The notes beneath the pieces are model-generated. The model was not told the origin of the DNA and did no database searches. It was given only the letters and a program-made list of their open reading frames with translations. A program made the position numbers and the translations under genes. A DNA stretch of 64,000 nucleotides from Sphingobacteriales bacterium (GTDB lineage: Bacteria > Bacteroidota > Bacteroidia > Chitinophagales > Chitinophagaceae). Within the stretch, counting starts at the first letter, position 1. Each line of letters starts with the position of its first letter. Positions 4,548-42,825 of this stretch are shown piece after piece. The stretch is taken from assembly GCA_027484425.1 (NCBI GenBank), contig JAIXSZ010000010.1, positions 1-64,000 on the forward strand. Reading direction: 5' to 3'.

Positions 4548-5309
4548 ATGCCCAGATATGTACTGGAGGTAATGTATGATGGCACATGTTTTCATGGGTC
4601 GCAGGTGCAGGGGCTAACGCCCACTGTGCAGCTAAGCATCAATGCTATGCTGAGCACACTACTGCGCACACCCATGGGTACAGTAGGGGCCAGCCGCACG
4701 GATGAGGGGGTGCATGCACTGTGCAACTACTATCATTATGACTCAGATGAAGAGCCCGGGAATGATTTTTTGTACAAATGCAATGCCATACTGCCGCAGG
4801 GGGTAGCAGTAAAAAAGCTATTTTTGGCACTAAAGCCCGACTTCAACGCCCGATTTGATGCGGCGGACCGAGCCTACAGATACCGCATATATGCTGCCAA
4901 AAATCCATTTCTACACGGTAGGGCACTGTACTATCCGTTTCCTATGAGGCGAGATATGCTGGATGAAACAGCCGCTGTAATAAAAGAATACACAGATTTT
5001 GAGTCGTTTGCGAAGCGGAATACGCAGTCCAAAACATTTATTTGCAAAATAGGGGAGTCGTACTGGCAGCAGCAGGGCGAAGAGCTACAATACGTGGTGA
5101 AGGCAAACCGATTTTTGCGAGGAATGGTAAGAGGGCTGGTGGCTACACAGCTCAGAATAGCAAAGGGCGGATATGAGTTGGCCGATTTCAGAGCCATATT
5201 AGAAGCTAAAGATTGTACTAAGGCGTTTTTTAATGTGACGGGCAATGGGTTGTACCTGGAGCAAATACAGTATCCTGATGGTACTATGCAGCTACTGCAA
5301 GTACACTGA
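4548..5309 (+). CDS. truA: tRNA pseudouridine(38-40) synthase TruA
   Basis: A 253-aa protein that isomerises uridines 38, 39 and 40 in the anticodon arm of tRNAs. The N-terminal strand YVLEVMYDG and the catalytic motif GASRTDEGVHA with Asp52 are diagnostic, as is RYRIYAAKNPF. It ends with the RGLVATQLRIAKG helix region. Length fits the family (about 245-270 aa). The ATG at 4548 starts right at the conserved first strand. It is a single gene behind the bla-type terminator. Confidence 0.93.
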   Translation: MPRYVLEVMYDGTCFHGSQVQGLTPTVQLSINAMLSTLLRTPMGTVGASRTDEGVHALCNYYHYDSDEEPGNDFLYKCNAILPQGVAVKKLFLALKPDFNARFDAADRAYRYRIYAAKNPFLHGRALYYPFPMRRDMLDETAAVIKEYTDFESFAKRNTQSKTFICKIGESYWQQQGEELQYVVKANRFLRGMVRGLVATQLRIAKGGYELADFRAILEAKDCTKAFFNVTGNGLYLEQIQYPDGTMQLLQVH

Positions 5310-5537
5310 GTGAAAAGGTCGTAATGTTATAAATAGTTAAGGTATTATTGTGTGTTGATTAATAAATTGTGAGAGCAAAATGAAGTGCAGTCATAACGCT
5401 GAAAGTGTTGATGTTATTGTGTTTTAGTGAAATGAGGGGTGGTGTGATGATAGATTTTTATAAAAAAATATGAAAATTGCAGGGATAACTATAATTTTTT
5501 GAGTATTTTTCGGCATTGTTTCATAAACTATATTGAT
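5310..5537. other. Intergenic between truA and the adhesin
   Basis: AT-rich DNA with no recognisable gene, hairpin terminator or repeat. A TTG at 5499 would extend the adhesin by 13 residues, but the ATG at 5538 is a better start. Confidence 0.5.
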
Positions 5538-8500
5538 ATGAGATTAGAACATATTTACCTAAGGCAATCAAGAAGGGAGAAAAGCACAAAAAAAGACGGT
5601 TTATTACGAACGTTTTTGTTTGGCGGTATGCTTATGGTTTTGCCATTAGTGGGTAGTGCGCAGGCACCTATACCATTGGAGGGAACTTCACAAACCAGAA
5701 CTGTGTGTGGTAACTTGGTTGTTGATTTGAATCAGTGGTTGAAAGTATCGGATATAGATCCTTCAGAAACGATTACTTGGTCAATTTTTAATGGACCTAA
5801 CAATGGTGTTCTAGGTGGATTCCCTTATTCTGCTGGTACTGGGAGTACAGTGGTGCCTACAGGTCTAAATTACATTGCAGATCCAGGTGCAACGAGTGAT
5901 GCATTTACTATAGAGATCACAGATGGGACTAATCCTCCAGTATATGTTAATATACTTCTTTCTATCAATAACGGTCCATCACTTACACTGGGTGCTATGC
6001 CTTCTGTTTGTGCTGGTGTTACGGTAGCTAGTATTCCGTTTACGGGTCTTACTAATGTAGGCCCTGATACGGCGATATTTAGTTATACGGGTGGCGCTCA
6101 GTCATGGACTGTACCTGCCAATGTTACCAGCTTCAAGTACGATATCATGGGTGCCGCTGGTGGTCGTGATAGCTACATAGGCGGTGTAGCTGGCAAGGGT
6201 GGTCGTGTGCAGGGTACTATTTCGGTAGCTCCTTTTACCAATGTAGGTATACAAGTAGGTGGCAAGGGCAATGATGGCTCTGTGCTGGGTGCTGCTGGTG
6301 GTTACAATGGTGGCGGCGATGCTTACTACTATTTTTACGGTAGTGGTGGTGCAGGTGGCGGTGCGTCAGACCTACGTATAGGTGGTATGGGCATGTCAAA
6401 CCGCAAGGTTGTAGCAGGTGGCGGAGGTGGTAATGGAGCCGATGGTTCTACTACATTTGCCGGTGGTAATGGTGGCGGACCCGTGGGTGCCAACAGTGCA
6501 GCCAACGTGTTTGGTTCTTCAGCTAGAGGCGGATCGCAGACAGCAGGTGGTGCTGGTGCCAACTACTTTGGTTGGGTACCTGGCGCATTTGGTTCTGCTG
6601 GTAATGGCGGCGACGGTAGCACACAAGGTTTGTCGGGCGGTGGAGGCGGTGGCTTCTATGGCGGCGGTGGTGGTATATGGAACGGTGGTGCAGGTGGTTC
6701 GTCTTACAGCGACCCTATCACTACATTCAATGTAGTGCACACACAAGGTGTAAACGAGGGCGACGGTATAGTAAATATATATTACACTAATCCTGGTACC
6801 TACACAATAATATGGGACAGCGTAACTACTGGCGGCGCATTTGATCAAGGTTTTGTGAATGTCGCTAATGCTGCATTGCCTACCAATGGTCAGTTTACCT
6901 TTGCAGTACCTGCAGGTGCTGCTCCTGGCACTTACTATGGTGCATTGTTTATCAACAACGTATCGTGTAATAGCGTAGAATATCCTATAGAAATATTTGT
7001 AAAACCACTCCCTACCGTTACAACACCAGCTGATATTGTTGTATGTCATGGTAATCCAGTGCCATTTACTCCATTCAGTGGTCCATTGGGTGGCAGTGCC
7101 TACAATTGGGTAAACGATAACCCAGCTATAGGTTTGGCAGCAGCAGGCGAAGGTCACATTCCTGCTTTTCCTCCAATTAACGATACACATTTCCCAGTAA
7201 GTGCCAATATCACTATTACCCCAGTGGCTAATGGTTGTATAGGTGCACCTGTAGTATTCCAGATAGTTGACAATCCAATACCAGTATTGAATAGTAGTGC
7301 TACACCACCAGCTATATGCAACAACACTTCCTTCAGTTACATACCAGGTAGCCTTACTCCGGGCACTACCTTTGCATGGACCCGCGATACCATAGCTGGT
7401 ATAGCAGAGCCTGGTACCTCTGGTACTAACAATCCTGGCGAAGTTCTGAGCAACACCACTATTGCCCCAATAACTGTACCTTATGTATATACACTCACTG
7501 CTAGCGGATGTTCAAATGTAGCAACAGTGCCTGTAGTAGTTAATCCTACTCCAACACTATCTAGCGAGGTGAATCCTGCACCATTGTGCAACAATGCACC
7601 ATTCAACTACACTCCTACTACATTAACTCCAGGTGCTACTATCAGTTGGAATCGCCCAGCAGTTGCTGGTATCAGCAATCCTACCGCCTCTGGTACGGGT
7701 GCTATCAGCGAAACATTGATCAACACTACCGCTACTCCTAAAACTGTAATCTATGCAATGACCATAAGAATAGGCAGTTGCAACTACGCACAGAATGTTA
7801 CTGTAGTCGTTAATCCATCATTGGCACTTACCAGCACTACTGCTTTGACCCCAACTTGTGACAGTCTTTTGCTGCATTACGAACCAACAACTATTGTATC
7901 TGGTGCTACTATCACTTGGTCTCGCGCTGCAATCGCTGGCATCAGCAATGCTGCTGCAACAGGTGTTGGCAATATCGACGAAACACTGGTGAACACAACC
8001 GCCGCTCCTATCGTTGTAACTTACAACTATACAGTGGCAGCTTTTGGTTGCACACGCACTCAGCCAGTTACTATCACAGTTAATCCAAGACCAAGACTGT
8101 CTACCTCACTGACTCCAGATGCAATCTGTACCAACTCATTGTTTGCGTACACAGCTGCTAGTGCAACAGCAGGTACTACATTTACATGGGCTCGCGATTT
8201 CAAAGCAGGTATCAGCAACGCACCTGTGTTGAGTAGTGGTAATGTAAGCGAGATATTAGTGAATTTCACTGATACTACAATCATCGTTCCTTATCTGTAC
8301 ACTTCATTTGCTAATGGTTGTGCTAATCAAGAATCAGTTTTGGTAACAGTACATCCGCTTCCAAAAATCAGCAACAATATTTCATCATTAGCAGTATGCG
8401 ATAGCGCAGTGTTCTCTTTCAATCCTACTAGCATTACTCCGGGCGCTACTTTCACTTGGACTCGTGGTTATGAAGCAGGTATTGCTAATCTTGCTTCATC

Positions 8501-31979: not shown

Positions 31980-32111
31980 CCACATTTTGAGGGTAAATCT
32001 GCTTTGGGCTTAATATTGGGGTAATCATGCAATGCTATTGCTGCTATATTGCTACCTCATTCTATTTTTTTGCCCATATTTATTCCTATTCCTCCCCTCA
32101 CTACTTCGCCT

Positions 32112-32119
32112 TACATTTG
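32112..32119 (+). promoter_or_regulatory. -7 element of dnaG
   Basis: TACATTTG ends 6 nt before the ATG at 32126. This implies a nearly leaderless mRNA and supports that start over one at 32027. Confidence 0.5.
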
Positions 32120-32125
32120 CATCAC

Positions 32126-34096
32126 ATGATCACACCTGCATCCATACAGGAAGTAATGAACCGCGCCGACATCGTTGATGTCCTAGGCCAGTTTATACGG
32201 TTGCGCAAAAGGGGCACCAACTACATAGCCAATTGTCCGTTTCACAACGAAAAAACACCTTCGTTCAATGTGTCGCAGGCAAAGGGTATCTACAAGTGTT
32301 TCGGCTGTGGCAAGGCAGGCGATGTAGTCACATTCGTCAAAGAGCACGAAAAACTAACCTATCCCGAGGCCATTCGTTGGCTCGCAGATTATTACAAAAT
32401 TGCACTCGAGGAAACCGAAAGTTCGCCAGAGCAGCAACAGCACCAAATGGCGGGCGAGGCATTACGTATACTCAACGACTATGCCGCCAACTACTTTTAC
32501 GATACACTCCTCCACGACGAAGAGGGTCAACTCATAGGCCTCAGTTACTTCAAGCAGCGCGGCTTCCGCAAGGAAATCATAGATCGTTTCAAGCTCGGCT
32601 ACAACCCCGACAAAGGCGATACTTTTTATCGCGAGGCAATAGCCAAGGGCTACAGTGCCGAAATGCTGGAGAAAGCAGGCCTTGCCAAAAACCGCAATGG
32701 CATCTACTACGATGTCTACAGGGGCAGGGTCATTTTCCCTATTCACAACATGACGGGGCGCATAGTGGGCTTTGGGGCACGCATACTCAAAACCACCGAC
32801 AAAGCACCTAAGTACATCAACACGCCCGAGAACGAACTCTACATCAAGAGCCGCATACTCTATGGCATGTACCAGAGCCGTCAGGCAATAGCCAAGCAAG
32901 ATGAATGCCTGCTGGTAGAGGGTTACACAGATGTTATATCCCTGCATCAGGGTGGGGTAGAGAATGTAGTATCCAGCAGTGGCACATCACTTACCGAGGA
33001 CCAACTGCGCCTCATAGCTCAGCTCACCAAAAACCTCACAATCCTCTACGATGGCGATGCAGCCGGTATCAAGGCAGCCCTCCGTGGCCTAGATATGGCA
33101 CTCTCCCAGAGCTTCAATGTACAGCTCGTACTGCTGCCCGATGGCGAAGACCCCGACAGTTTTGTACAGAAATCGGGTGCTGCACGGTTTCACGAGTATG
33201 TCAAAGAGCACAAACAAGATGTCATCAGCTTCCGCATGCAGGTGGGCTTGGCAGATGTAGGCGATGATCCTGTAAAACGCTCCAAACTCGTAAACGAAAT
33301 AGCCGAAAGCATTTCGCGCATCAACAAGGCCGAAGATTTTGCGCTCCAGAGCCACTACATCAGGCTCGCAGCCCAAAAGATGCAGGTTGACGAGGCAGGG
33401 CTCATCAACCTCATCAACAAGTACATTCGCGACCGCATAGAAAACGAGCAGCGACAAACCCGCAGAGCCGAAGGCCTCTCGCAGCAGCCCGATGTACTGC
33501 CACCACCTGGCATAGAAGTAGCCCACACCGACGACCAGCCCGCCGAAACCAAACCCGATGCCCACCACAATCAGGAGTGGCAGCTCATCAGAGTACTTAT
33601 AGAGCATGGTGCCAAGCCCTACGAGGGGTTCGACAATGTAGCGCGCCTCATAGAGTCCAGGGTAGACGAAAACCTGCTACAACAAGACATGGTCAAAGCA
33701 CTATACATAGAGTATTTTCATACCTACAACCACAGCGGACAAGTGCCCGACACCCAATACTTTATTCGCCACACCGATGCCGATGTCAGGTCTCGTATGG
33801 CGTCATTGCTCCACCCCCCACAGTCTATCAGCAGCAAGTGGAAGGAGAAATACGGCATAGAACAGCTACCCGACACCATCATTTATCCAAACGACGTCGA
33901 CAGCACTCTGTCTTACTTCGAGCTCAAGAAGATACTCCTAATACAGCAGCAACTCATGCTTCGCCTCAAAGACGAGCAAGACCCCATCAAGATGCAAGTA
34001 ATGCAACAGCGCTTCCTAGCCCTCCGCCTAGCCGAAAAAGACATCCTCAAGCGCCACGGCACCGTAGTCTACGAAGCCAAAAAACGTAATGCATAG
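32126..34096 (+). CDS. dnaG: DNA primase DnaG
   Basis: A 656-aa replication primase. The zinc-ribbon is CPFHNEKTPSF...YKCFGCG (Cys37, His40, Cys58, Cys61). The TOPRIM catalytic core has LLVEGYTDVISL (Glu about 264) and LYDGDAAGIKAA (Asp-x-Asp about 309-311), and the RNA polymerase basic region includes GYNPDKGDTFY and GRVIFPIHNMTGRIVGFGAR. The C-terminal ~200 residues should bind the DnaB helicase. The first codons MITPASIQEVMNRADIVDVL fit the family start. Confidence 0.96.
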   Translation: MITPASIQEVMNRADIVDVLGQFIRLRKRGTNYIANCPFHNEKTPSFNVSQAKGIYKCFGCGKAGDVVTFVKEHEKLTYPEAIRWLADYYKIALEETESSPEQQQHQMAGEALRILNDYAANYFYDTLLHDEEGQLIGLSYFKQRGFRKEIIDRFKLGYNPDKGDTFYREAIAKGYSAEMLEKAGLAKNRNGIYYDVYRGRVIFPIHNMTGRIVGFGARILKTTDKAPKYINTPENELYIKSRILYGMYQSRQAIAKQDECLLVEGYTDVISLHQGGVENVVSSSGTSLTEDQLRLIAQLTKNLTILYDGDAAGIKAALRGLDMALSQSFNVQLVLLPDGEDPDSFVQKSGAARFHEYVKEHKQDVISFRMQVGLADVGDDPVKRSKLVNEIAESISRINKAEDFALQSHYIRLAAQKMQVDEAGLINLINKYIRDRIENEQRQTRRAEGLSQQPDVLPPPGIEVAHTDDQPAETKPDAHHNQEWQLIRVLIEHGAKPYEGFDNVARLIESRVDENLLQQDMVKALYIEYFHTYNHSGQVPDTQYFIRHTDADVRSRMASLLHPPQSISSKWKEKYGIEQLPDTIIYPNDVDSTLSYFELKKILLIQQQLMLRLKDEQDPIKMQVMQQRFLALRLAEKDILKRHGTVVYEAKKRNA

Positions 34097-34372: not shown

Positions 34373-35389
34373 TATTTTTAGCCGCCGTTGTTGGCGTCCT
34401 CGCCAACAACCACGAGTAGGACAAAGATCATGTTTTACAAATAGCAGTGATTTTCACATCCCCCCTTTGTTGGCGCCCCAGTTCGAAACCGCGAGCTGGG
34501 CAGACATCATTGTTTACAGATAGCAGGGCGTTACAAAATCCCAAGTGTTTGGCATGCTGTTATACAGAGCAGCAGTGCTGTATTTATACTCTTCGGCACA
34601 TGAGGTGTAGCCCGCATTTACAGGATTTGTATGTATATAGTAAAGTTTTTGCATCAGCACTTCTTCAGAATAAATGTCCACCGAAAGTGCATTCCGTTCC
34701 CATATTTGGTATTTTTACCCGCCGTTGTTGGCGTCCTCGCCAACAACCACGAGCAGGACAAAGATCATGTGTTACAAATAGCAGTGATTTTCACATCCCC
34801 CCTTTGTTGGCGTCCCAGTTCAAAACCGTTAGCTGGGCAGAGATCATTGTTTACAGATAGCAGGGCGTTACAAAATCCCAAGTGTTTGGCATGCTGTTAT
34901 ACAGAGCAGCAGTGCTGTATTTATACTCTTCGGCACATGAGGTGTAGCCTGCATTTACAGGATTTGTATGTATATAGTAAAGTTTTTGCATCAGCACTTC
35001 TTCAGAATAAATGTCCACCGAAAGTGCATTCCGTTCCCATATTTGGTATTTTTAGCCGCCGTTGTTGGCGTCCTCGCCAACAACCACGAGTAGGACAAAG
35101 ATCATGTTTTACAAATAGCAGTGATTTTCACATCCCCCCTTTGTTGGCGCCCCAGTTCAAAACCGTGAGCTTGGCAGACATCATTGTTTACAGATAGCAC
35201 GGCGTTACAAAATCCCAGGTGTTTGGCATGCTGTTATACAGAGCAGCAGTGCTGTATTTATACTCTTCGGCACATGAGGTGTAGCCTGCATTTACAGGAT
35301 TCGTATGTATGTAGTAAAGTTTTTGTATCAGCACTTCTTCAGAATAAATGTCCACCGAAAGTGCATTCCGTTCCCATATTTGGTATTTT
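34373..35389. repeat. Three tandem 337-bp units: RAYT tail plus REP hairpin
   Basis: Units at 34373-34709, 34710-35046 and 35047-35383 are near-identical. Each carries the hairpin GTTGTTGGCG-TCCT-CGCCAACAAC (34387-34410, 34724-34747, 35061-35084), a second stem CCCAG...CTGGG and, on the minus strand, the last ~65 codons of the RAYT gene from YQIWERN to the stop. In the third unit this is the real gene end; in the other two it is a headless stub (34514-34709, 34851-35046) that keeps an open frame and the same final residues TWDFVTPCYL. Confidence 0.92.
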
Positions 35390-35706
35390 CTGTCTTTTGC
35401 ATTGACATAATGTTTATTGAGCAATGTTGGGTTTTCATCTTTCAGGTGTTTGATAATACCTTTTGCAGTAAACCCAAGAAAGTCGCGTTGTACATCTTCT
35501 TTTTTATAAGGATGAAGTATATGCCATATAAGGTGCAAGTGGTTATTCATAATAACAAAAGCATTGAGCTGTATCCTATTTTGGGCAACAAGGAATCGGA
35601 GGCTATTGATAATAATGTCTTTGTTTTGTTCATTATCCAGCAATGGCTGCCACTGCAATATTGTTGCAGTAAAAAAGGTCAGTTCATATCTTCGAGCAGA
35701 TGACAT
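35188..35706 (-). CDS. REP-associated tyrosine transposase (RAYT)
   Basis: A 172-aa single-domain Y1 transposase of the IS200/IS605-related RAYT type. The HUH motif is MNNHLHLIW (His56, His58), and the catalytic tyrosine is probably Tyr132 in KLYYIHTNPVNAG; the WERNAL region and the closing EYKYSTAALY are also typical. Such enzymes nick and join single-stranded REP hairpins. The gene is intact, has a -7 element, and has REP hairpins on both sides (35061-35084 and 35793-35948). The ATG at 35706 (MSSARRYELTFF) is chosen because a degraded paralogue at 38.3 kb starts the same way. Confidence 0.9.
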   Translation of the reverse strand: MSSARRYELTFFTATILQWQPLLDNEQNKDIIINSLRFLVAQNRIQLNAFVIMNNHLHLIWHILHPYKKEDVQRDFLGFTAKGIIKHLKDENPTLLNKHYVNAKDRKYQIWERNALSVDIYSEEVLIQKLYYIHTNPVNAGYTSCAEEYKYSTAALYNSMPNTWDFVTPCYL

Positions 35707-35732: not shown

Positions 35733-35792
35733 TTGTATTTTGTATGATATTTTCATGCGGTATAAATACATAGAAGTACATAACTTTCTGCC

Positions 35793-35948
35793 GTTGTTGG
35801 TCTTATTTTCTCCTGTACAACCATCTACCAACATGTTGATAATGAGAGTTTTTGAAAAAGAAGTTTAATGCTTCTTCTGAAAGTAACATAAAGTTACAGG
35901 TTGTATGAATTAATCAACGGCATCCCAGTCGATGGATTGACCAACAAC
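35793..35948 (-). repeat. REP-bounded 156-bp element, right copy
   Basis: It begins GTTGTTGGTC and ends GACCAACAAC, and is the inverted counterpart of 110-265 at equal length. It lies about 85 bp upstream of the RAYT start codon. Just beyond it (35949-35972) is the conserved flank CACGTGCCGGACAGGAAACA seen beside the other REP hairpins. Confidence 0.85.
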
Positions 35949-35973
35949 CACGTGCCGGACAGGAAACATGTGA

Positions 35974-36051
35974 TCAAATATAAAAAGGTTCAATAAATCC
36001 AAGCTTATCTTCGCCGCTACAATAAATCGATGCTGTGCAATTCTTATAATC
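35974..36051 (-). pseudogene. RAYT C-terminal remnant
   Basis: The minus strand encodes a short tail, DYKNCTASIYCSGEDKLGF then IEPFYI and a stop, which resembles the end of the RAYT pseudogene at 38.1 kb (EDYKYSTASIYSSGEDKFGF). Nothing upstream continues the gene; another repeat begins at about 36058. Confidence 0.65.
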
Positions 36052-36057
36052 ACCACT

Positions 36058-36250
36058 CGTCCCCGTTTGCAACGGGGATGCTGTGGAATGGCGTTTGTAA
36101 CGCCTCTCTCTGAGTTTGGCGTAAGTTGTACCTACGGCATGCTCGGTTGCCGGTTTCCGACCTGCTTTCCAGTTCTATAATGTGTGCCAACCCCATATAT
36201 ATGGCGCATCTTTCACCGACGGCAGGCATGGTTGCCTGTTTCAACTCATA
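36058..36250. repeat. Palindrome-rich block before mrr
   Basis: Contains the stems CCCCGTT-TGC-AACGGGG (36061-36077), GGCGTT-TGT-AACGCC (36090-36104) and CAGGC-N6-GCCTG (about 36223-36238). The stretch from 36112 (GAGTTTGGCGTAAGTTGTACC) resembles the boundary element found at 37225, 37905, 39028, 40111 and 40207 (AGTTTGGCGTATGT). No gene seen. Confidence 0.55.
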
Positions 36251-36337
36251 AGTGTTCGGAAGTTTTTTTCTTTGCTTAACTTGTATATGCATCGCCCGCA
36301 ATTATTAAATAACTTTACTGATTACAACAGAATAATA

Positions 36338-37219
36338 ATGGACATACCTAAATTTGATCAAACTTTTTTGCCTATCCTTGAAGTTCTAAAGACCGGTAAA
36401 GTATACAAGACCAGAGAGTTAATCGAAGAAGTAAAATCGAAGTTTTATACTGCACTGACAGATGACCAACTGAAACAAGAAACAAAATCAGGCGATCTAT
36501 TAATAGATAACAGAATCGCATGGGGTAAGTCATACCTAAAGAAAGGAGGATACGTGTTTTTTCCACAACGTGGACACGTCCAAATAACAGACAAGGGTAA
36601 AAATCATAAAGCTGATTTGTCGGTAAGGGAGTTAGAAAATGAGAGTACACTGTTTGAATTTTATAAACAAGAGAAGCAATCCGCTTCTGTTGACAATAAA
36701 CATACAGTAGAGATATCTTCACCTCAAGACCTTATCGATGAAGGTTTCAATAGAATTGAAAGCGATGTAAAACAAGAATTATTACAGAAATTGAAAGGAA
36801 TTGATCCTTACTTTTTTGAAAAAGTAGTCCTTAGATTACTTAAAAAAATGGGGTATGGCGAATTCATAGAAACCTCAAAATCAAATGACGGTGGGATAGA
36901 TGGCATTATTAACGAGGATAAATTAGGCCTTGATAAAATCTACATTCAAGCTAAACGATTTAATGAAGGAAAGGTCAGAGAAAAAGATATCAGAAATTTT
37001 ATTGGTGCTATGAGCGGTGACACAAACAAAGGTGTTTTTGTTACTACATCAGATTTTGACGAAAAAGCAATTGAAAAAGCACGATCAGCACATCATAAAA
37101 TAATTTGCATTGACGGACAGAAGTTGGTTAAACTCATGCTTGAATTTAATGTTGGAATTCAGGTAAAGACGACCTACGAAATAAAACAAATAGATGAGGA
37201 CTTTTTTGATGAGCAATAG
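36338..37219 (+). CDS. mrr: Mrr-family restriction endonuclease
   Basis: A 293-aa protein. Residues ~1-95 form the Mrr N-terminal winged helix (MDIPKFDQTFLPILEVLK, IAWGKSYLKKGGYV, ITDKGK). The C-terminal ~150 residues are the Mrr PD-(D/E)xK nuclease: LRLLKKMGYGEFIETSKSND, GGIDGII with the catalytic Asp near 188, and IYIQAKRF with Gln/Lys near 203-205. Mrr enzymes cut DNA bearing foreign methylation (type IV restriction). The ATG at 36338 is used because upstream codons run through the repeat block. No methyltransferase is nearby, as expected for type IV. Confidence 0.92.
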   Translation: MDIPKFDQTFLPILEVLKTGKVYKTRELIEEVKSKFYTALTDDQLKQETKSGDLLIDNRIAWGKSYLKKGGYVFFPQRGHVQITDKGKNHKADLSVRELENESTLFEFYKQEKQSASVDNKHTVEISSPQDLIDEGFNRIESDVKQELLQKLKGIDPYFFEKVVLRLLKKMGYGEFIETSKSNDGGIDGIINEDKLGLDKIYIQAKRFNEGKVREKDIRNFIGAMSGDTNKGVFVTTSDFDEKAIEKARSAHHKIICIDGQKLVKLMLEFNVGIQVKTTYEIKQIDEDFFDEQ

Positions 37220-37904: not shown

Positions 37905-37999
37905 CCTAGCCCAGCGTAGTATAAAATAAAATCTAGTTTGGCGTATGTCTCCGACTACGTCACGGCGGCAGTCAATCTCCAGATTGACGGAACAATAAT
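37905..37999 (+). repeat. Boundary element, copy b
   Basis: Full-length copy starting 7 bp after the lipoprotein stop. It reads CCTAGCCCAGCGTAG, then AGTTTGGCGTATGTCTCCGA, and ends with the perfect stem GTCAATCT-CC-AGATTGAC. It is nearly identical to copies c and d and has the same orientation. Confidence 0.88.
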
Positions 38000-38086
38000 C
38001 TGCCCATCCTCGTTGTTCCATTTATTCATTCGGTCAACTAGAACTTCCAATAAAAATCGTTCTCCCGAACGCCTTCACTTTCTGCC

Positions 38087-38115
38087 GTTGTTGGTCTTAT
38101 TTTCTGACCAACAAC
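38087..38115. repeat. REP hairpin
   Basis: GTTGTTGGTC (38087-38096), a 9-nt loop and GACCAACAAC (38106-38115), then the flank CTCGTGCTGGACAGGAAACA shared with 35949-35968. Confidence 0.85.
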
Positions 38116-38140
38116 CTCGTGCTGGACAGGAAACACGTGA

Positions 38141-38333
38141 TCAAAAATAAAAAGGTTCAATAAATCCAAACTTGTCTTCGCCGCTACTATAAATCGATGC
38201 GGTGCTATACTTATAATCTTCGGCATATGCACATAATCCGGCTCTATCAGGATTATTGTTAAGATACATAAGATTTCGATTCATTTATGGTGGCAGTAAA
38301 AAAGTCAGCTTCATAACGCCGGGAGGATGCCAT
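38141..38333 (-). pseudogene. RAYT pseudogene with internal deletion
   Basis: It begins like the intact RAYT (MASSRRYEADFFTATI) and ends like it (MYLNNNPDRAGLCAYAEDYK, then YSTASIYSS and IEPFYF), but everything between, including the HUH motif, is missing and the two parts are in different frames. REP hairpins lie on both sides (38087-38115 and 38396-38424), as for the intact gene. Confidence 0.85.
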
Positions 38334-38395
38334 GGTGTGCAAAATATAAATTAATTTGCTAAATAATTACTATTTGTAGATTTTTCCTGCGCGAG

Positions 38396-38424
38396 GTTGT
38401 TGTTCGGAGAATAAGATCAACAAC
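38396..38424. repeat. REP hairpin, imperfect
   Basis: GTTGTTGTTC (38396-38405) pairs with GATCAACAAC (38415-38424) with one mismatch around a short loop. It is the 5'-side partner of the hairpin at 38087 around the RAYT pseudogene. Confidence 0.7.
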
Positions 38425-38475: not shown

Positions 38476-39033
38476 ATGAAAACTAAACTTTTAATTGCTG
38501 TAATGCTAACCCTTTCTTACATCTCTTATTCACAGCACACAGATAGAACAGTGATATTTAGTAATGAAATAAAATATTTTATGGATTCTGTTAGAAGTCA
38601 AACTAACGGCAAATTAAATTATCATGTTTTTGTGGTTAAGTTATTCAGTCAATATCCTGACTCTAATTCCCTATGCTTTTCAATAAGTTACATAATGAAT
38701 TATGTTAATTTAAACGATCAAAATCTCAATCATTACATTAAGATTGACAGTGATTACGTTATGATCAATAGAAACGATTTTAACAGTGACGTCTTTCTAG
38801 ATTATAAAATAAAAAATAAAGATTCTGTGTGTCAAAATTTTCTTTCCCATAAATTACTGGACATTAAAAAAGGATATATTAGCTCCCACCCAGAAGGTGC
38901 AATAGTTTGTATTTCCCAAAAGAAAATAAAAAAGAAATTCTATGAATATGCTGATGACATGCCACCTCAGTTTTCAGTATTCAATATGCCTGAAGGTGTT
39001 ATTATCGAAAAGATATATGAACCTAAGCCCTAG
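38476..39033 (+). CDS. Orphan exported protein
   Basis: A 185-aa protein with a signal peptide (MKTKLLIAVMLTLSYISYSQ). No recognised domain; rich in Asn, Asp, Ser and Lys, and AT-rich in codon use. Its stop codon TAG is the TAG of the boundary element that starts at 39028, so the last residues (KP) are encoded by element DNA. Function unknown. Confidence 0.65.
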   Translation: MKTKLLIAVMLTLSYISYSQHTDRTVIFSNEIKYFMDSVRSQTNGKLNYHVFVVKLFSQYPDSNSLCFSISYIMNYVNLNDQNLNHYIKIDSDYVMINRNDFNSDVFLDYKIKNKDSVCQNFLSHKLLDIKKGYISSHPEGAIVCISQKKIKKKFYEYADDMPPQFSVFNMPEGVIIEKIYEPKP

Positions 39034-39119
39034 CCCAGCGTAGTATAAAAAATCAAGTTTGGCGTATGTCTCCGACTACGTCACGGCGGCAGTCAATCTC
39101 CAGATTGACGAAACAATAA
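39028..39119 (+). repeat. Boundary element, copy c
   Basis: CCCTAGCCCAGCGTAGTATA through the GTCAATCT-CC-AGATTGAC stem. It overlaps the stop codon of the preceding gene and has the same orientation as copies a, b, d and e. Confidence 0.88.
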
Positions 39120-41383: not shown

Positions 41384-42697
41384 ATGACCCTAACAGAACA
41401 GAAACAAACAGCCCTAGATTTGTATGTCAACCAATCATTCACCCAGCAGCAAGTAGCCGACGCCCTCGGTGTCACTGTCCGCACCATCCACAACTGGGTC
41501 AAACAACACGCTTGGGATCGCCTCCGTCTAGCTACCCACCAAGCCCCAGCCCTCATTGCCGACAATTTCAGCAGCCAGCTTGTAGAGCTACAAAACAACA
41601 TTGCCGCTCGCGAGCCCGGCAAACGAATACCCACTACCCAAGAAATGGAAATCATGCGCAAGCTAACCGTATGTATAGCCAACACCAAAAAGACGGTCAG
41701 TCTGCCTCAGGTAACACAAATGATGCGAATGTTCCGCGCATTTGTCTTCGACAACCGCACCAAACCATACGCCCAAGGTGTAGCCGACCTTATCGATGGC
41801 TTCATCGAGGCACGCTCGCGTTTCGGCTATTCCCCCTTCGAACTAGAATTTGGCGTAGAAAAAATCCAACACATCGATCCACTCTATAGTCCATATGTCG
41901 ATACGATAGCCCAAGAAACCACCGAACCCGTAATCCCAAGATTTTACGAGCCACCACCACGCACCACCACCACCACCACACCCCCTGAAACCAGTAAAAG
42001 AACACACGTCATAGACACCAGTACCTGGACCGACGAAATGCTCATTGCCATCAACAAAGAACTCAGCAACCACGAAGCCATCAAAAACATGCCACCCGAA
42101 CAACAAAAAACCTACGCCGAATTGTCACAGATACTCAAACCAGTTATGGAAAGTAGATTACCATTGATTGTCAATGACTTAGCCCCCAAAACGCATGAAA
42201 CAACCGGAAACGAACCGGAAAACCTCGAAACCATGCTGACACGTATCAGAAAAGCATTCCTCCAAAACCACCCCGTCCATCCCGACTATGACAAGCCCAA
42301 AACCACCAGCAAAACTGCATCAATACCGGAAAATGAAACCTCATTGATAATCAACGACTTAAGTGCCAAAACACATGAAAACACCGGAAACGAACCCGAA
42401 ATACAGCCCGTTCGGCTGTCCCCCCAATCTAGCTCTCTTTCCCGCTCTGAAAATCCCTCTGACATGCCAATTACTGCATCATTACCGGAAAATGAAACAG
42501 CATTGATAATCAACGACTTAGGCCCCAAAACACATGAAACAACCGGAAATGAACCGGAAAATCCAACACCCCCTAAAACACCCTCCCGGCCCAAAGACAA
42601 CCTCATCCGTCAGGGCGAAGTATTCTCACGCCCTGTATTTGTCACCCCCACATGGCCCTTCCGCGAAGAGCCTCGTGGCAACAAATTCAAATACTAA
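41384..42697 (+). CDS. Terminase-gpP-like HTH protein with internal repeats
   Basis: A 437-aa protein. The N-terminal ~60 residues form a helix-turn-helix resembling the phage terminase ATPase-subunit N-terminus (LYVNQSFTQQQVADALGVTV, RTIHNWVKQHAWDRL). Residues ~60-160 are helical. The rest is low-complexity, with three copies of a ~22-residue motif (NDLxxKTHExTGNEPE) at about 259, 325 and 380. No other phage gene is near, so it is likelier a stand-alone DNA-binding protein than part of a prophage. Function unknown. Confidence 0.65.
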   Translation: MTLTEQKQTALDLYVNQSFTQQQVADALGVTVRTIHNWVKQHAWDRLRLATHQAPALIADNFSSQLVELQNNIAAREPGKRIPTTQEMEIMRKLTVCIANTKKTVSLPQVTQMMRMFRAFVFDNRTKPYAQGVADLIDGFIEARSRFGYSPFELEFGVEKIQHIDPLYSPYVDTIAQETTEPVIPRFYEPPPRTTTTTTPPETSKRTHVIDTSTWTDEMLIAINKELSNHEAIKNMPPEQQKTYAELSQILKPVMESRLPLIVNDLAPKTHETTGNEPENLETMLTRIRKAFLQNHPVHPDYDKPKTTSKTASIPENETSLIINDLSAKTHENTGNEPEIQPVRLSPQSSSLSRSENPSDMPITASLPENETALIINDLGPKTHETTGNEPENPTPPKTPSRPKDNLIRQGEVFSRPVFVTPTWPFREEPRGNKFKY

Positions 42698-42825
42698 CCA
42701 CCTCCATACCTTTTAGTAGCCATAGCTTTAAGCGAAGGCTACCGGAAAAGTGAATAGTATTGATAATCAACGAGTTAATCCCAAAAACATATGAAACCAC
42801 CGGCAACAACCGGTAATCACCCGGC
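42161..42825 (+). repeat. Four scattered ~70-90 bp direct repeats
   Basis: Copies at about 42161-42222, 42325-42402, 42483-42562 and 42749-42825 share CATTGATAATCAACGACTTA-like DNA, then AAAACACATGAAACAACCGG. Three lie inside the HTH gene and encode its repeated motif; the fourth lies after the stop codon. The match is at DNA level as well as protein level. Confidence 0.8.

What the first reader, a model, noticed from the sequence alone, without database searches (positions are those of the whole stretch)
34373..35706. RAYT gene whose 3' tail plus REP hairpin is triplicated in tandem
The sequence shows three 337-bp units, each joining the last ~65 RAYT codons (including the catalytic-tyrosine region YIHTNPVNAG) to a perfect REP hairpin (GTTGTTGGCG-TCCT-CGCCAACAAC). 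Only the last unit belongs to a complete gene. RAYTs are known to act on REP hairpins. Here the repeat unit includes part of the transposase gene itself, as if the cut-and-join step or slippage between hairpins copied the gene end. The stubs remain open and keep the same terminal residues, so the event is recent or the stubs are conserved.
Basis: partly seen in the sequence, partly recalled or inferred. Interest (0 to 1): 0.7.

Follow-up and report, generated by a model that had tools for sequence, protein, structure and literature searches.

The report
Transposase gene tail copied with hairpin
Beside a bacterial transposase-like gene, its last third and the DNA hairpin behind it stand three times in a row; similar copies lie beside a minority of related genes, and in many of those one end of the copy falls a few bases outside the hairpin, which hints at a single-strand cut there, although a simple copying slip is not excluded.

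Summary
In detail: 34373-35389 is a tandem array of three 337-bp units (96-97% identical). Each unit holds the last ~66 codons of a RAYT (NCBIfam NF047646, above cut-off) plus a perfect 10-bp-stem REP hairpin; only the last unit continues into the full gene. The units differ at 15 positions, so an assembly duplicate is unlikely. The joint is not hairpin-to-hairpin: it runs from 8-14 nt outside the hairpin (GGC side) into the gene interior across a 6-nt shared TATTTT. Of 234 RAYT sequences compared, 37 carry direct repeats overlapping a RAYT. Automatic scoring found a REP at the joint in 15 of them (window included), 5-9 nt from the hairpin foot each time; it scored none in a held-out set of remoter RAYTs (0 of 7 copies). 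Whole-RAYT copies end 3-9 nt outside the hairpins too. Best reading: a RAYT nick outside the REP leaves a 3' end that re-primes inside the gene, duplicating gene end plus REP; unequal exchange then made three units. RAYT-free hairpin slippage remains a serious rival. RAYT 3' termini captured between REPs were reported in 2010 in gammaproteobacteria, so the array is a variant of a known kind; the near-constant breakpoint is the new part.

The parts
34373..34709 (.). Unit 1 of the 337-bp array (farthest from the complete gene)
34710..35046 (.). Unit 2
35047..35389 (.). Unit 3 (337 bp plus the 6-nt shared TATTTT), the part shared with the complete gene
34387..34410 (.). REP hairpin 1, 10-bp perfect stem, 4-nt loop; outer (GCC) side at left
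34724..34747 (.). REP hairpin 2
35061..35084 (.). REP hairpin 3, right-end REP of the complete gene
34514..34714 (-). RAYT 3' stub 1 (66 codons plus stop)
34851..35051 (-). RAYT 3' stub 2
35188..35706 (-). Complete RAYT, 172 aa, NHLH metal-binding motif and YIHTNP tyrosine motif
   Evidence: NCBIfam NF047646 83.7 bits, cut-off 80; Pfam Y1_Tnp only E=0.049; alignment
35384..35389 (.). TATTTT inside the gene, the inner breakpoint; the same six bases stand at 34373-34378, 34710-34715 and 35047-35052
35786..36051 (-). RAYT tail plus REP of a second type, its hairpin interrupted by about 130 bp
38084..38420 (-). Internally deleted RAYT element of the second type: right REP, last ~46 codons, first codons, left REP; its tail part is 89% identical over 204 nt to an intact RAYT locus of G013

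Best explanation
The array is a one-ended, REP-anchored tandem duplication. The RAYT, an HUH single-strand nuclease, nicks about 5-9 nt outside the REP behind its own gene and leaves a 3'-OH on the hairpin side. That 3' end re-pairs through 0-6 shared bases (here AAAATA on the gene strand) inside the RAYT gene and is extended, so that gene end plus REP are copied a second time. Homologous unequal exchange between the two copies then gives three units. Shown: the anatomy, the microhomology, and recurrence in relatives with one breakpoint at a near-constant distance from the hairpin. Inferred: that RAYT makes the nick, that the 3' end primes, and the step from two to three units.
For: Joint read directly at 34710 and 35047: hairpin-GGCGG(C/G)TA-AAAATACC against gene ...GACAG-AAAATACC. 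Recurrence: a hairpin at the joint for 13 of 22 interior-start copies in the first 89 sequences (10 of 16 loci; one of the 13, in L181, is not a REP) and 5 of 13 in the second held-out set (5 of 11 loci); random positions 3.65% and 3.3%. A hairpin foot anywhere from 20 nt before to 8 nt after the joint was accepted, yet in every scored row the interior starts 5-9 nt past the foot. Both 3'-end copies (window, L170, L184, L187, L193, L195, L269, L271, L280, L295) and 5'-end copies (L095, L099, L176, L181, L331) occur. TRF arrays holding a REP, 101 sequences: 11 of 15 have an array end 4-14 nt outside on the GGC side, 2 on the inner side, 2.17 expected per side; second held-out set 4 of 5 outer, 0 inner; all three sets 15 v 3, binomial p 0.0075. 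Whole-RAYT copies end 3-9 nt outside their hairpins (read by eye); L204 has two of 653 bp at 99.85%, and three of its four edges coincide with where RAYT-free relatives of the flanks begin or stop to match. In vitro, other TnpAREPs cut 5' or 3' of REPs and leave a 5'-phosphotyrosine and a free 3'-OH: PMC8266576 passages.
Against: First held-out set (60 loci, remoter RAYTs): 0 of 7 interior-start copies scored, and its single REP-scored array was of the inner type, on inspection not this kind of REP. In the other two sets 9 of 22 and 8 of 13 copies had no scored hairpin at the joint; some are spaced copies with unrelated joints, some have degenerate REP-like sequence. The outer-side excess among arrays that do not overlap a RAYT is only 8 v 3 (not significant, about 0.23 by hand). 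No constant cleavage dinucleotide such as the C|T of other RAYTs is visible at the joints. L208 is a tandem RAYT duplication without a REP at the joint. No biochemistry or reads were available.
Confidence: 0.5

Rival explanations
1. RAYT-independent replication slippage: the newly made strand folds into the REP hairpin, its 3' end comes off the template just past the hairpin and re-anneals upstream at a short identity inside the gene; later unequal exchange makes three units.
For: Explains the hairpin at the joint, the few nt beyond it and the microhomology (6 nt here; 0-6 nt elsewhere as read) without an enzyme.
Against: Predicts joints on both sides of the hairpin equally; TRF arrays show 15 outer against 3 inner, though only 8 v 3 when RAYT-overlapping arrays are left out. 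Does not explain why whole-RAYT copies end at a like distance.
Confidence: 0.33
2. Nested insertion and decay: a RAYT element inserted into another copy of itself, leaving a tail fragment behind its right REP.
For: Would also put a right REP directly against a gene interior; whole RAYT copies near each other exist (L095, L189, L204, L346, L347).
Against: Predicts a matching head fragment upstream of the complete gene; none was found upstream of the window gene, where a tail of another RAYT type lies instead. Does not predict two stubs with one and the same joint.
Confidence: 0.07
3. The stubs are kept for a function, for example as decoy REPs or as an RNA or peptide that regulates the RAYT.
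For: Changes private to one stub: 1 in 2x193 coding against 8 in 2x144 non-coding bases, Fisher p 0.006; the one coding change is synonymous.
Against: Small numbers; gene conversion between stubs would look the same; stubs lack the NHLH motif, and expression was not testable.
Confidence: 0.06
4. Assembly artefact of a short-read draft.
For: Draft of 95 contigs.
Against: Units differ from one another at 9-12 positions; the array lies inside a 93-kb contig; the same kind of structure is seen in other assemblies.
Confidence: 0.02

Closest known systems
rayt 3' termini captured between REPs in rayt-adjacent BIMEs (Nunvar et al. 2010, PMC2817692; Discussion section read whole)
   Same: End of a RAYT gene repeated together with REPs beside the complete gene; the authors suspect RAYT cleavage and 3'-OH priming.
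   Different: Theirs are four cases in BIMEs of gammaproteobacteria; here a direct array with one REP per unit, in a Bacteroidota genome, also with 5' gene ends in relatives, and with a measured near-constant breakpoint. Their supplementary file was not seen, so their breakpoints are unknown to me.
Tandem REPIN clusters including flanking sequence beside RAYTs in P. fluorescens SBW25 (PMC3116915; passages and section 11)
   Same: REP plus neighbouring DNA repeated in tandem near RAYTs.
   Different: No RAYT coding sequence in the repeat is mentioned in the passages seen.
TnpAREP subclass 2.6 / RAYT group 5, mostly Bacteroidetes, with atypical secondary structures (PMC6006769; passages)
   Same: NH[LIV]H and YIHxNP-like motifs, Bacteroidota, hairpins beside the gene.
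   Different: Resemblance by motif and host only; no tree was made. The REP here is a plain perfect hairpin.
IS200/IS605 insertion sequences (TnpA Y1)
   Same: HUH-tyrosine nuclease, terminal hairpins, cleavage outside the hairpin (PMC6006769 passages).
   Different: The terminal hairpins in relatives are inverted REPs; Pfam Y1_Tnp is matched only at E=0.049.

Membership tests
REP-associated tyrosine transposase (RAYT/TnpAREP) | Family profile match | tested here: met
   NF047646 83.7 bits, cut-off 80
REP-associated tyrosine transposase (RAYT/TnpAREP) | HUH motif and single catalytic tyrosine | tested here: met
   H56-x-H58 and Y132 (YIHTNP) invariant in the five sequences aligned; which tyrosine is catalytic is taken from the published motif (PMC6006769 passages)
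REP-associated tyrosine transposase (RAYT/TnpAREP) | Gene flanked by inverted REPs | tested here: inconclusive
   Right REP present; no left REP of the same type found upstream of the window gene; both present in relatives such as L095, L099, L204
REP-associated tyrosine transposase (RAYT/TnpAREP) | Cognate REPs in high copy in the genome (usual, not universal) | tested here: not met
   Exact hairpin 4 times in 4.58 Mb; a few degenerate relatives. The second type has 43 matches at E up to 1, many of them short
BIME | Alternating inverted REPs in tandem units | tested here: not met
   All three REPs here are in the same orientation, one per unit
RAYT subclass 2.6 / group 5 | Falls in that clade | not tested
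   Motif resemblance only

The most novel reading that the evidence does not exclude
RAYTs of this Bacteroidota group make REP arrays by one-ended events: a cut 5-9 nt outside a REP followed by re-priming at a nearby short identity; the same cut still moves whole RAYT elements. The duplicated gene ends are then natural footprints that map the cleavage site of a transposase group for which I saw no in vitro data, and speak against the view that RAYT genes show no sign of mobility.
Probability: 0.35. Interest if true: 0.7.

Novelty: new variant of a known kind. Interest (0 to 1): 0.45.

Why it matters
How REPs spread and form arrays is an open question; [quoted passage not shown] A breakpoint at a near-constant distance from the hairpin, in 15 loci, and near-identical whole-RAYT copies with like ends give a testable cut position and a model in which single REPs suffice. 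Because the copied flank is a gene, the breakpoints can be read almost to the base, which is harder in ordinary intergenic REP arrays.

Tried and rejected
Chance: rejected (one search score 1929). Assembly duplicate: unlikely on 15 variable positions. Hairpin-to-hairpin slippage: rejected, since the joint holds gene interior on one side. Nested self-insertion: no head stub found upstream.

Empty site for the window locus: dnaG matched in 31 of 35 genomes of the genus; of the 30 loci given, only the window's own has a RAYT in the flank held (1.5 kb at most; five loci shorter). Of 80 named dnaG loci (best 80 of 269; flanks up to 3 kb, many shorter), none has a RAYT match. The 276-bp stretch between dnaG and the array is matched over 90 bp at 78% in G013 and likewise in the nearest named relative (L396, dnaG 91%), plus a 37-bp match in L362. 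So the array is absent from the nearest relatives held, but the insertion point could not be mapped. Clean empty site for the G340 RAYT copies: not found; the left and right flanks match different places.

Cleavage dinucleotide: no constant pair seen at the joints (by eye). Selection on stubs: small numbers, left open.

It gave one array, of the inner type, so a second set was fetched; both are reported. The first 89 sequences were not an unbiased draw: L095, L099 and L100 were taken because one search showed double or partial hits, and L141 and L208 were widened for the same reason. L306 was dropped from the second set as a repeat of L210. A later check found that L281 lies inside L346, so 234 sequences are 233 places, and that L250 and L256 share some stretches. 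Arrays of period under 60 were left out of the array counts. One search used 101 sequences (L081-L100, L129-L208, whole window), not the 89.

Paper searches for an earlier description: (listings seen). Passages only: PMC3686654, PMC6006769, PMC8266576; passages and one section: PMC3116915, PMC2817692. Not run: fold prediction, RNA families, viral or metagenome scans.

Full report
What is there. Between an ORF that I read as dnaG (32027-34096, plus strand) and an ORF that I read as Mrr-like (36182-37219; both names are mine and come from no family search) the window carries a minus-strand RAYT gene, 35188-35706, and behind its stop an array of three 337-bp units from 34373 to 35389. The RAYT passes the NCBIfam cut-off for REP-associated tyrosine transposase (83.7 against 80), reaches Pfam Y1_Tnp only at E=0.049, and has NHLH and YIHTNP motifs whose H56, H58 and Y132 are invariant among five aligned sequences. 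Each unit consists, in the sense of the gene, of the last 66 codons, about 100 nt, a perfect hairpin GTTGTTGGCG-AGGA-CGCCAACAAC and GGCGG(C/G)TA. The exact hairpin pattern occurs four times in the genome, three of them here.

The joint. Between units the sequence runs hairpin-GGCGG(C/G)TA-AAAATACCAAATATGG; in the complete gene the same place reads GACAG-AAAATACCAAATATGG, and beyond the last REP the flank reads GGCGGCTAAAAATA-TCG. So one breakpoint is in the gene at codon 106/107, the other lies 8-14 nt outside the hairpin, and AAAATA is shared. A single ancestral REP is enough. Units 1 and 2 differ at 9 positions, 1 and 3 at 9, 2 and 3 at 12.

Relatives. RAYTs 53-69% identical to this one are in other genomes of the genus. 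I fetched RAYT loci in three lots: 88 loci plus the window, 60 loci and 85 loci. Direct repeats of at least 60 nt that overlap a RAYT by 20 nt are present in 19 of 89, 4 of 60 and 14 of 85; the first lot was partly chosen for such signs, and L281 lies inside L346. The middle lot holds remoter RAYTs. An automatic scan of copies that start inside a full RAYT found a hairpin directly before the joint in 13 of 22, 0 of 7 and 5 of 13 copies, against 3.65%, 2.9% and 3.3% of random positions (binomial p 3e-12, taking 12 of 22, and 4e-5 for the first and third lot; some rows come from one locus, so they are not all independent). One of the 13, in L181, is not a REP. In all scored rows the interior sequence begins 5-9 nt past the hairpin foot: for example L170 ggcaggaga|TTCAGC, L176 ggcggg|AATATT, L181 ggcgc|AAATCC, L193 taaga|GAATAC, L269 ggcggtgtg|GTTTGG, L271 cggcgtga|AGCAG, L280 cgtaa|ACTGG, L331 gcctgg|AGAATC. 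By eye, L165, L216, L270, L308 and L324 have degenerate REP-like sequence there that the scan did not score; L208 is a tandem copy without a REP. Both gene ends are found copied.

Side of the hairpin. Tandem arrays of period 60 or more that hold a hairpin with GGC on one side only: in 101 sequences 15 of 44 non-redundant arrays qualify; 11 have an array end 4-14 nt on the GGC side, 2 on the other, 2.17 expected on each. First held-out lot: 1 of 15 arrays qualifies, inner, on inspection not this kind of REP. Second: 5 of 32 arrays, 4 outer, 0 inner, 0.87 expected. Summed 15 against 3, p 0.0075. Seven of the 15 outer arrays overlap a RAYT; without them it is 8 against 3, not significant by itself (about 0.23, worked out by hand).

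Whole elements. L204 (a one-contig genome) holds two 653-bp copies from TCGCC-left hairpin to right hairpin-GGCGGAG at 99.85%, 2.6 kb apart; L189 two at 99.2%, L347 two at 95.8%; L095, L346 and L341 have older ones. For L204 copy 1, two RAYT-free copies of the left flank diverge at the left edge, and four alignments of right-flank relatives start exactly at the right edge (others start further in); for copy 2 a RAYT-free copy of the right flank starts exactly at the edge. No clean empty site was found, so segmental events are not excluded. Published statements that RAYT genes show no mobility are in PMC2817692, PMC6006769 and PMC8266576.

Second element type in the same genome. The sequence at 38084-38420 is a RAYT of another type with its middle deleted (right REP, ~46 last codons, first codons, left REP); similar tail-plus-REP pieces are on C4 (four within 6.4 kb), C86 and C17, with a partial one on C76. 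An intact relative is in G013. At 35786-36051 such a tail lies just upstream of the window RAYT, its hairpin interrupted by about 130 bp; the same insert interrupts the copies at the window start and on C17. I found no left REP of its own type upstream of the window RAYT.

Age. Among 30 dnaG loci of the genus and 80 named dnaG loci only the window's own has a RAYT match in the flank held. Six coding differences among the units are all at third positions, five synonymous; five of them set the gene apart from both stubs. Outgroup codons lean to a change in the gene at two of these (2 of 3 outgroups each) and are unclear at the rest.

Mechanism. In other RAYT groups the enzyme cuts next to REPs and leaves a 3'-OH and a 5'-phosphotyrosine, and the 3'-OH may prime synthesis (PMC8266576 passages; PMC2817692 Discussion). 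A cut 5-9 nt outside the REP, re-pairing within the gene and extension would give the observed joint with one REP. Hairpin-induced slippage without RAYT gives the same joint but should not prefer one side nor agree with the ends of whole copies. I hold the nick model at about one half and slippage at one third.

Known or new. Nunvar et al. [quoted passage not shown] The window array is thus a variant of a known kind in another phylum. I saw no report of the near-constant breakpoint or of copied 5' ends in the listings and the passages read; most subscription papers are not in that library.

Noticed in passing
37907-37998 and 39031-39119: A ~90-bp intergenic sequence (AGCCCAGCGTAGTATAAA...GTCAATCTCCAGATTGACG) stands twice, each time behind a small ORF; looks like a separate repeat family. 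Seen in the raw sequence.
   Followed up: no
42150-42816: Short stretches match a repeat region of contig C4 (L081:13400-13777) at about 75-90%; that C4 region also matches contigs C17, C33 and C76.
   Followed up: no
1-118 and 247-272: The contig begins inside a RAYT-tail/REP element of the second type; C76 begins in one and C17 ends close behind one, so they may break the assembly.
   Followed up: partly
L081:5670-8493: A ~1.02-kb sequence in almost three tandem copies (about 85% identical) lies between RAYT-tail elements on contig C4.
   Followed up: no
35811-35941: An insert of about 130 bp inside a REP hairpin, shared by three places (window 36 kb, window start, C17), so this interrupted REP itself seems to have spread.
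   Followed up: partly
34514-35051: Stub-private changes avoid the coding part (1 coding, 8 non-coding, Fisher p 0.006) while gene-private changes do not (5 coding, 1 non-coding); selection, gene conversion or a mutable hairpin region could explain it.
   Followed up: partly
L204:2461-3113 and 5104-5756: Two near-identical complete RAYT elements 2.6 kb apart in a one-contig genome, a sign of recent RAYT movement or segmental copying.
   Followed up: partly
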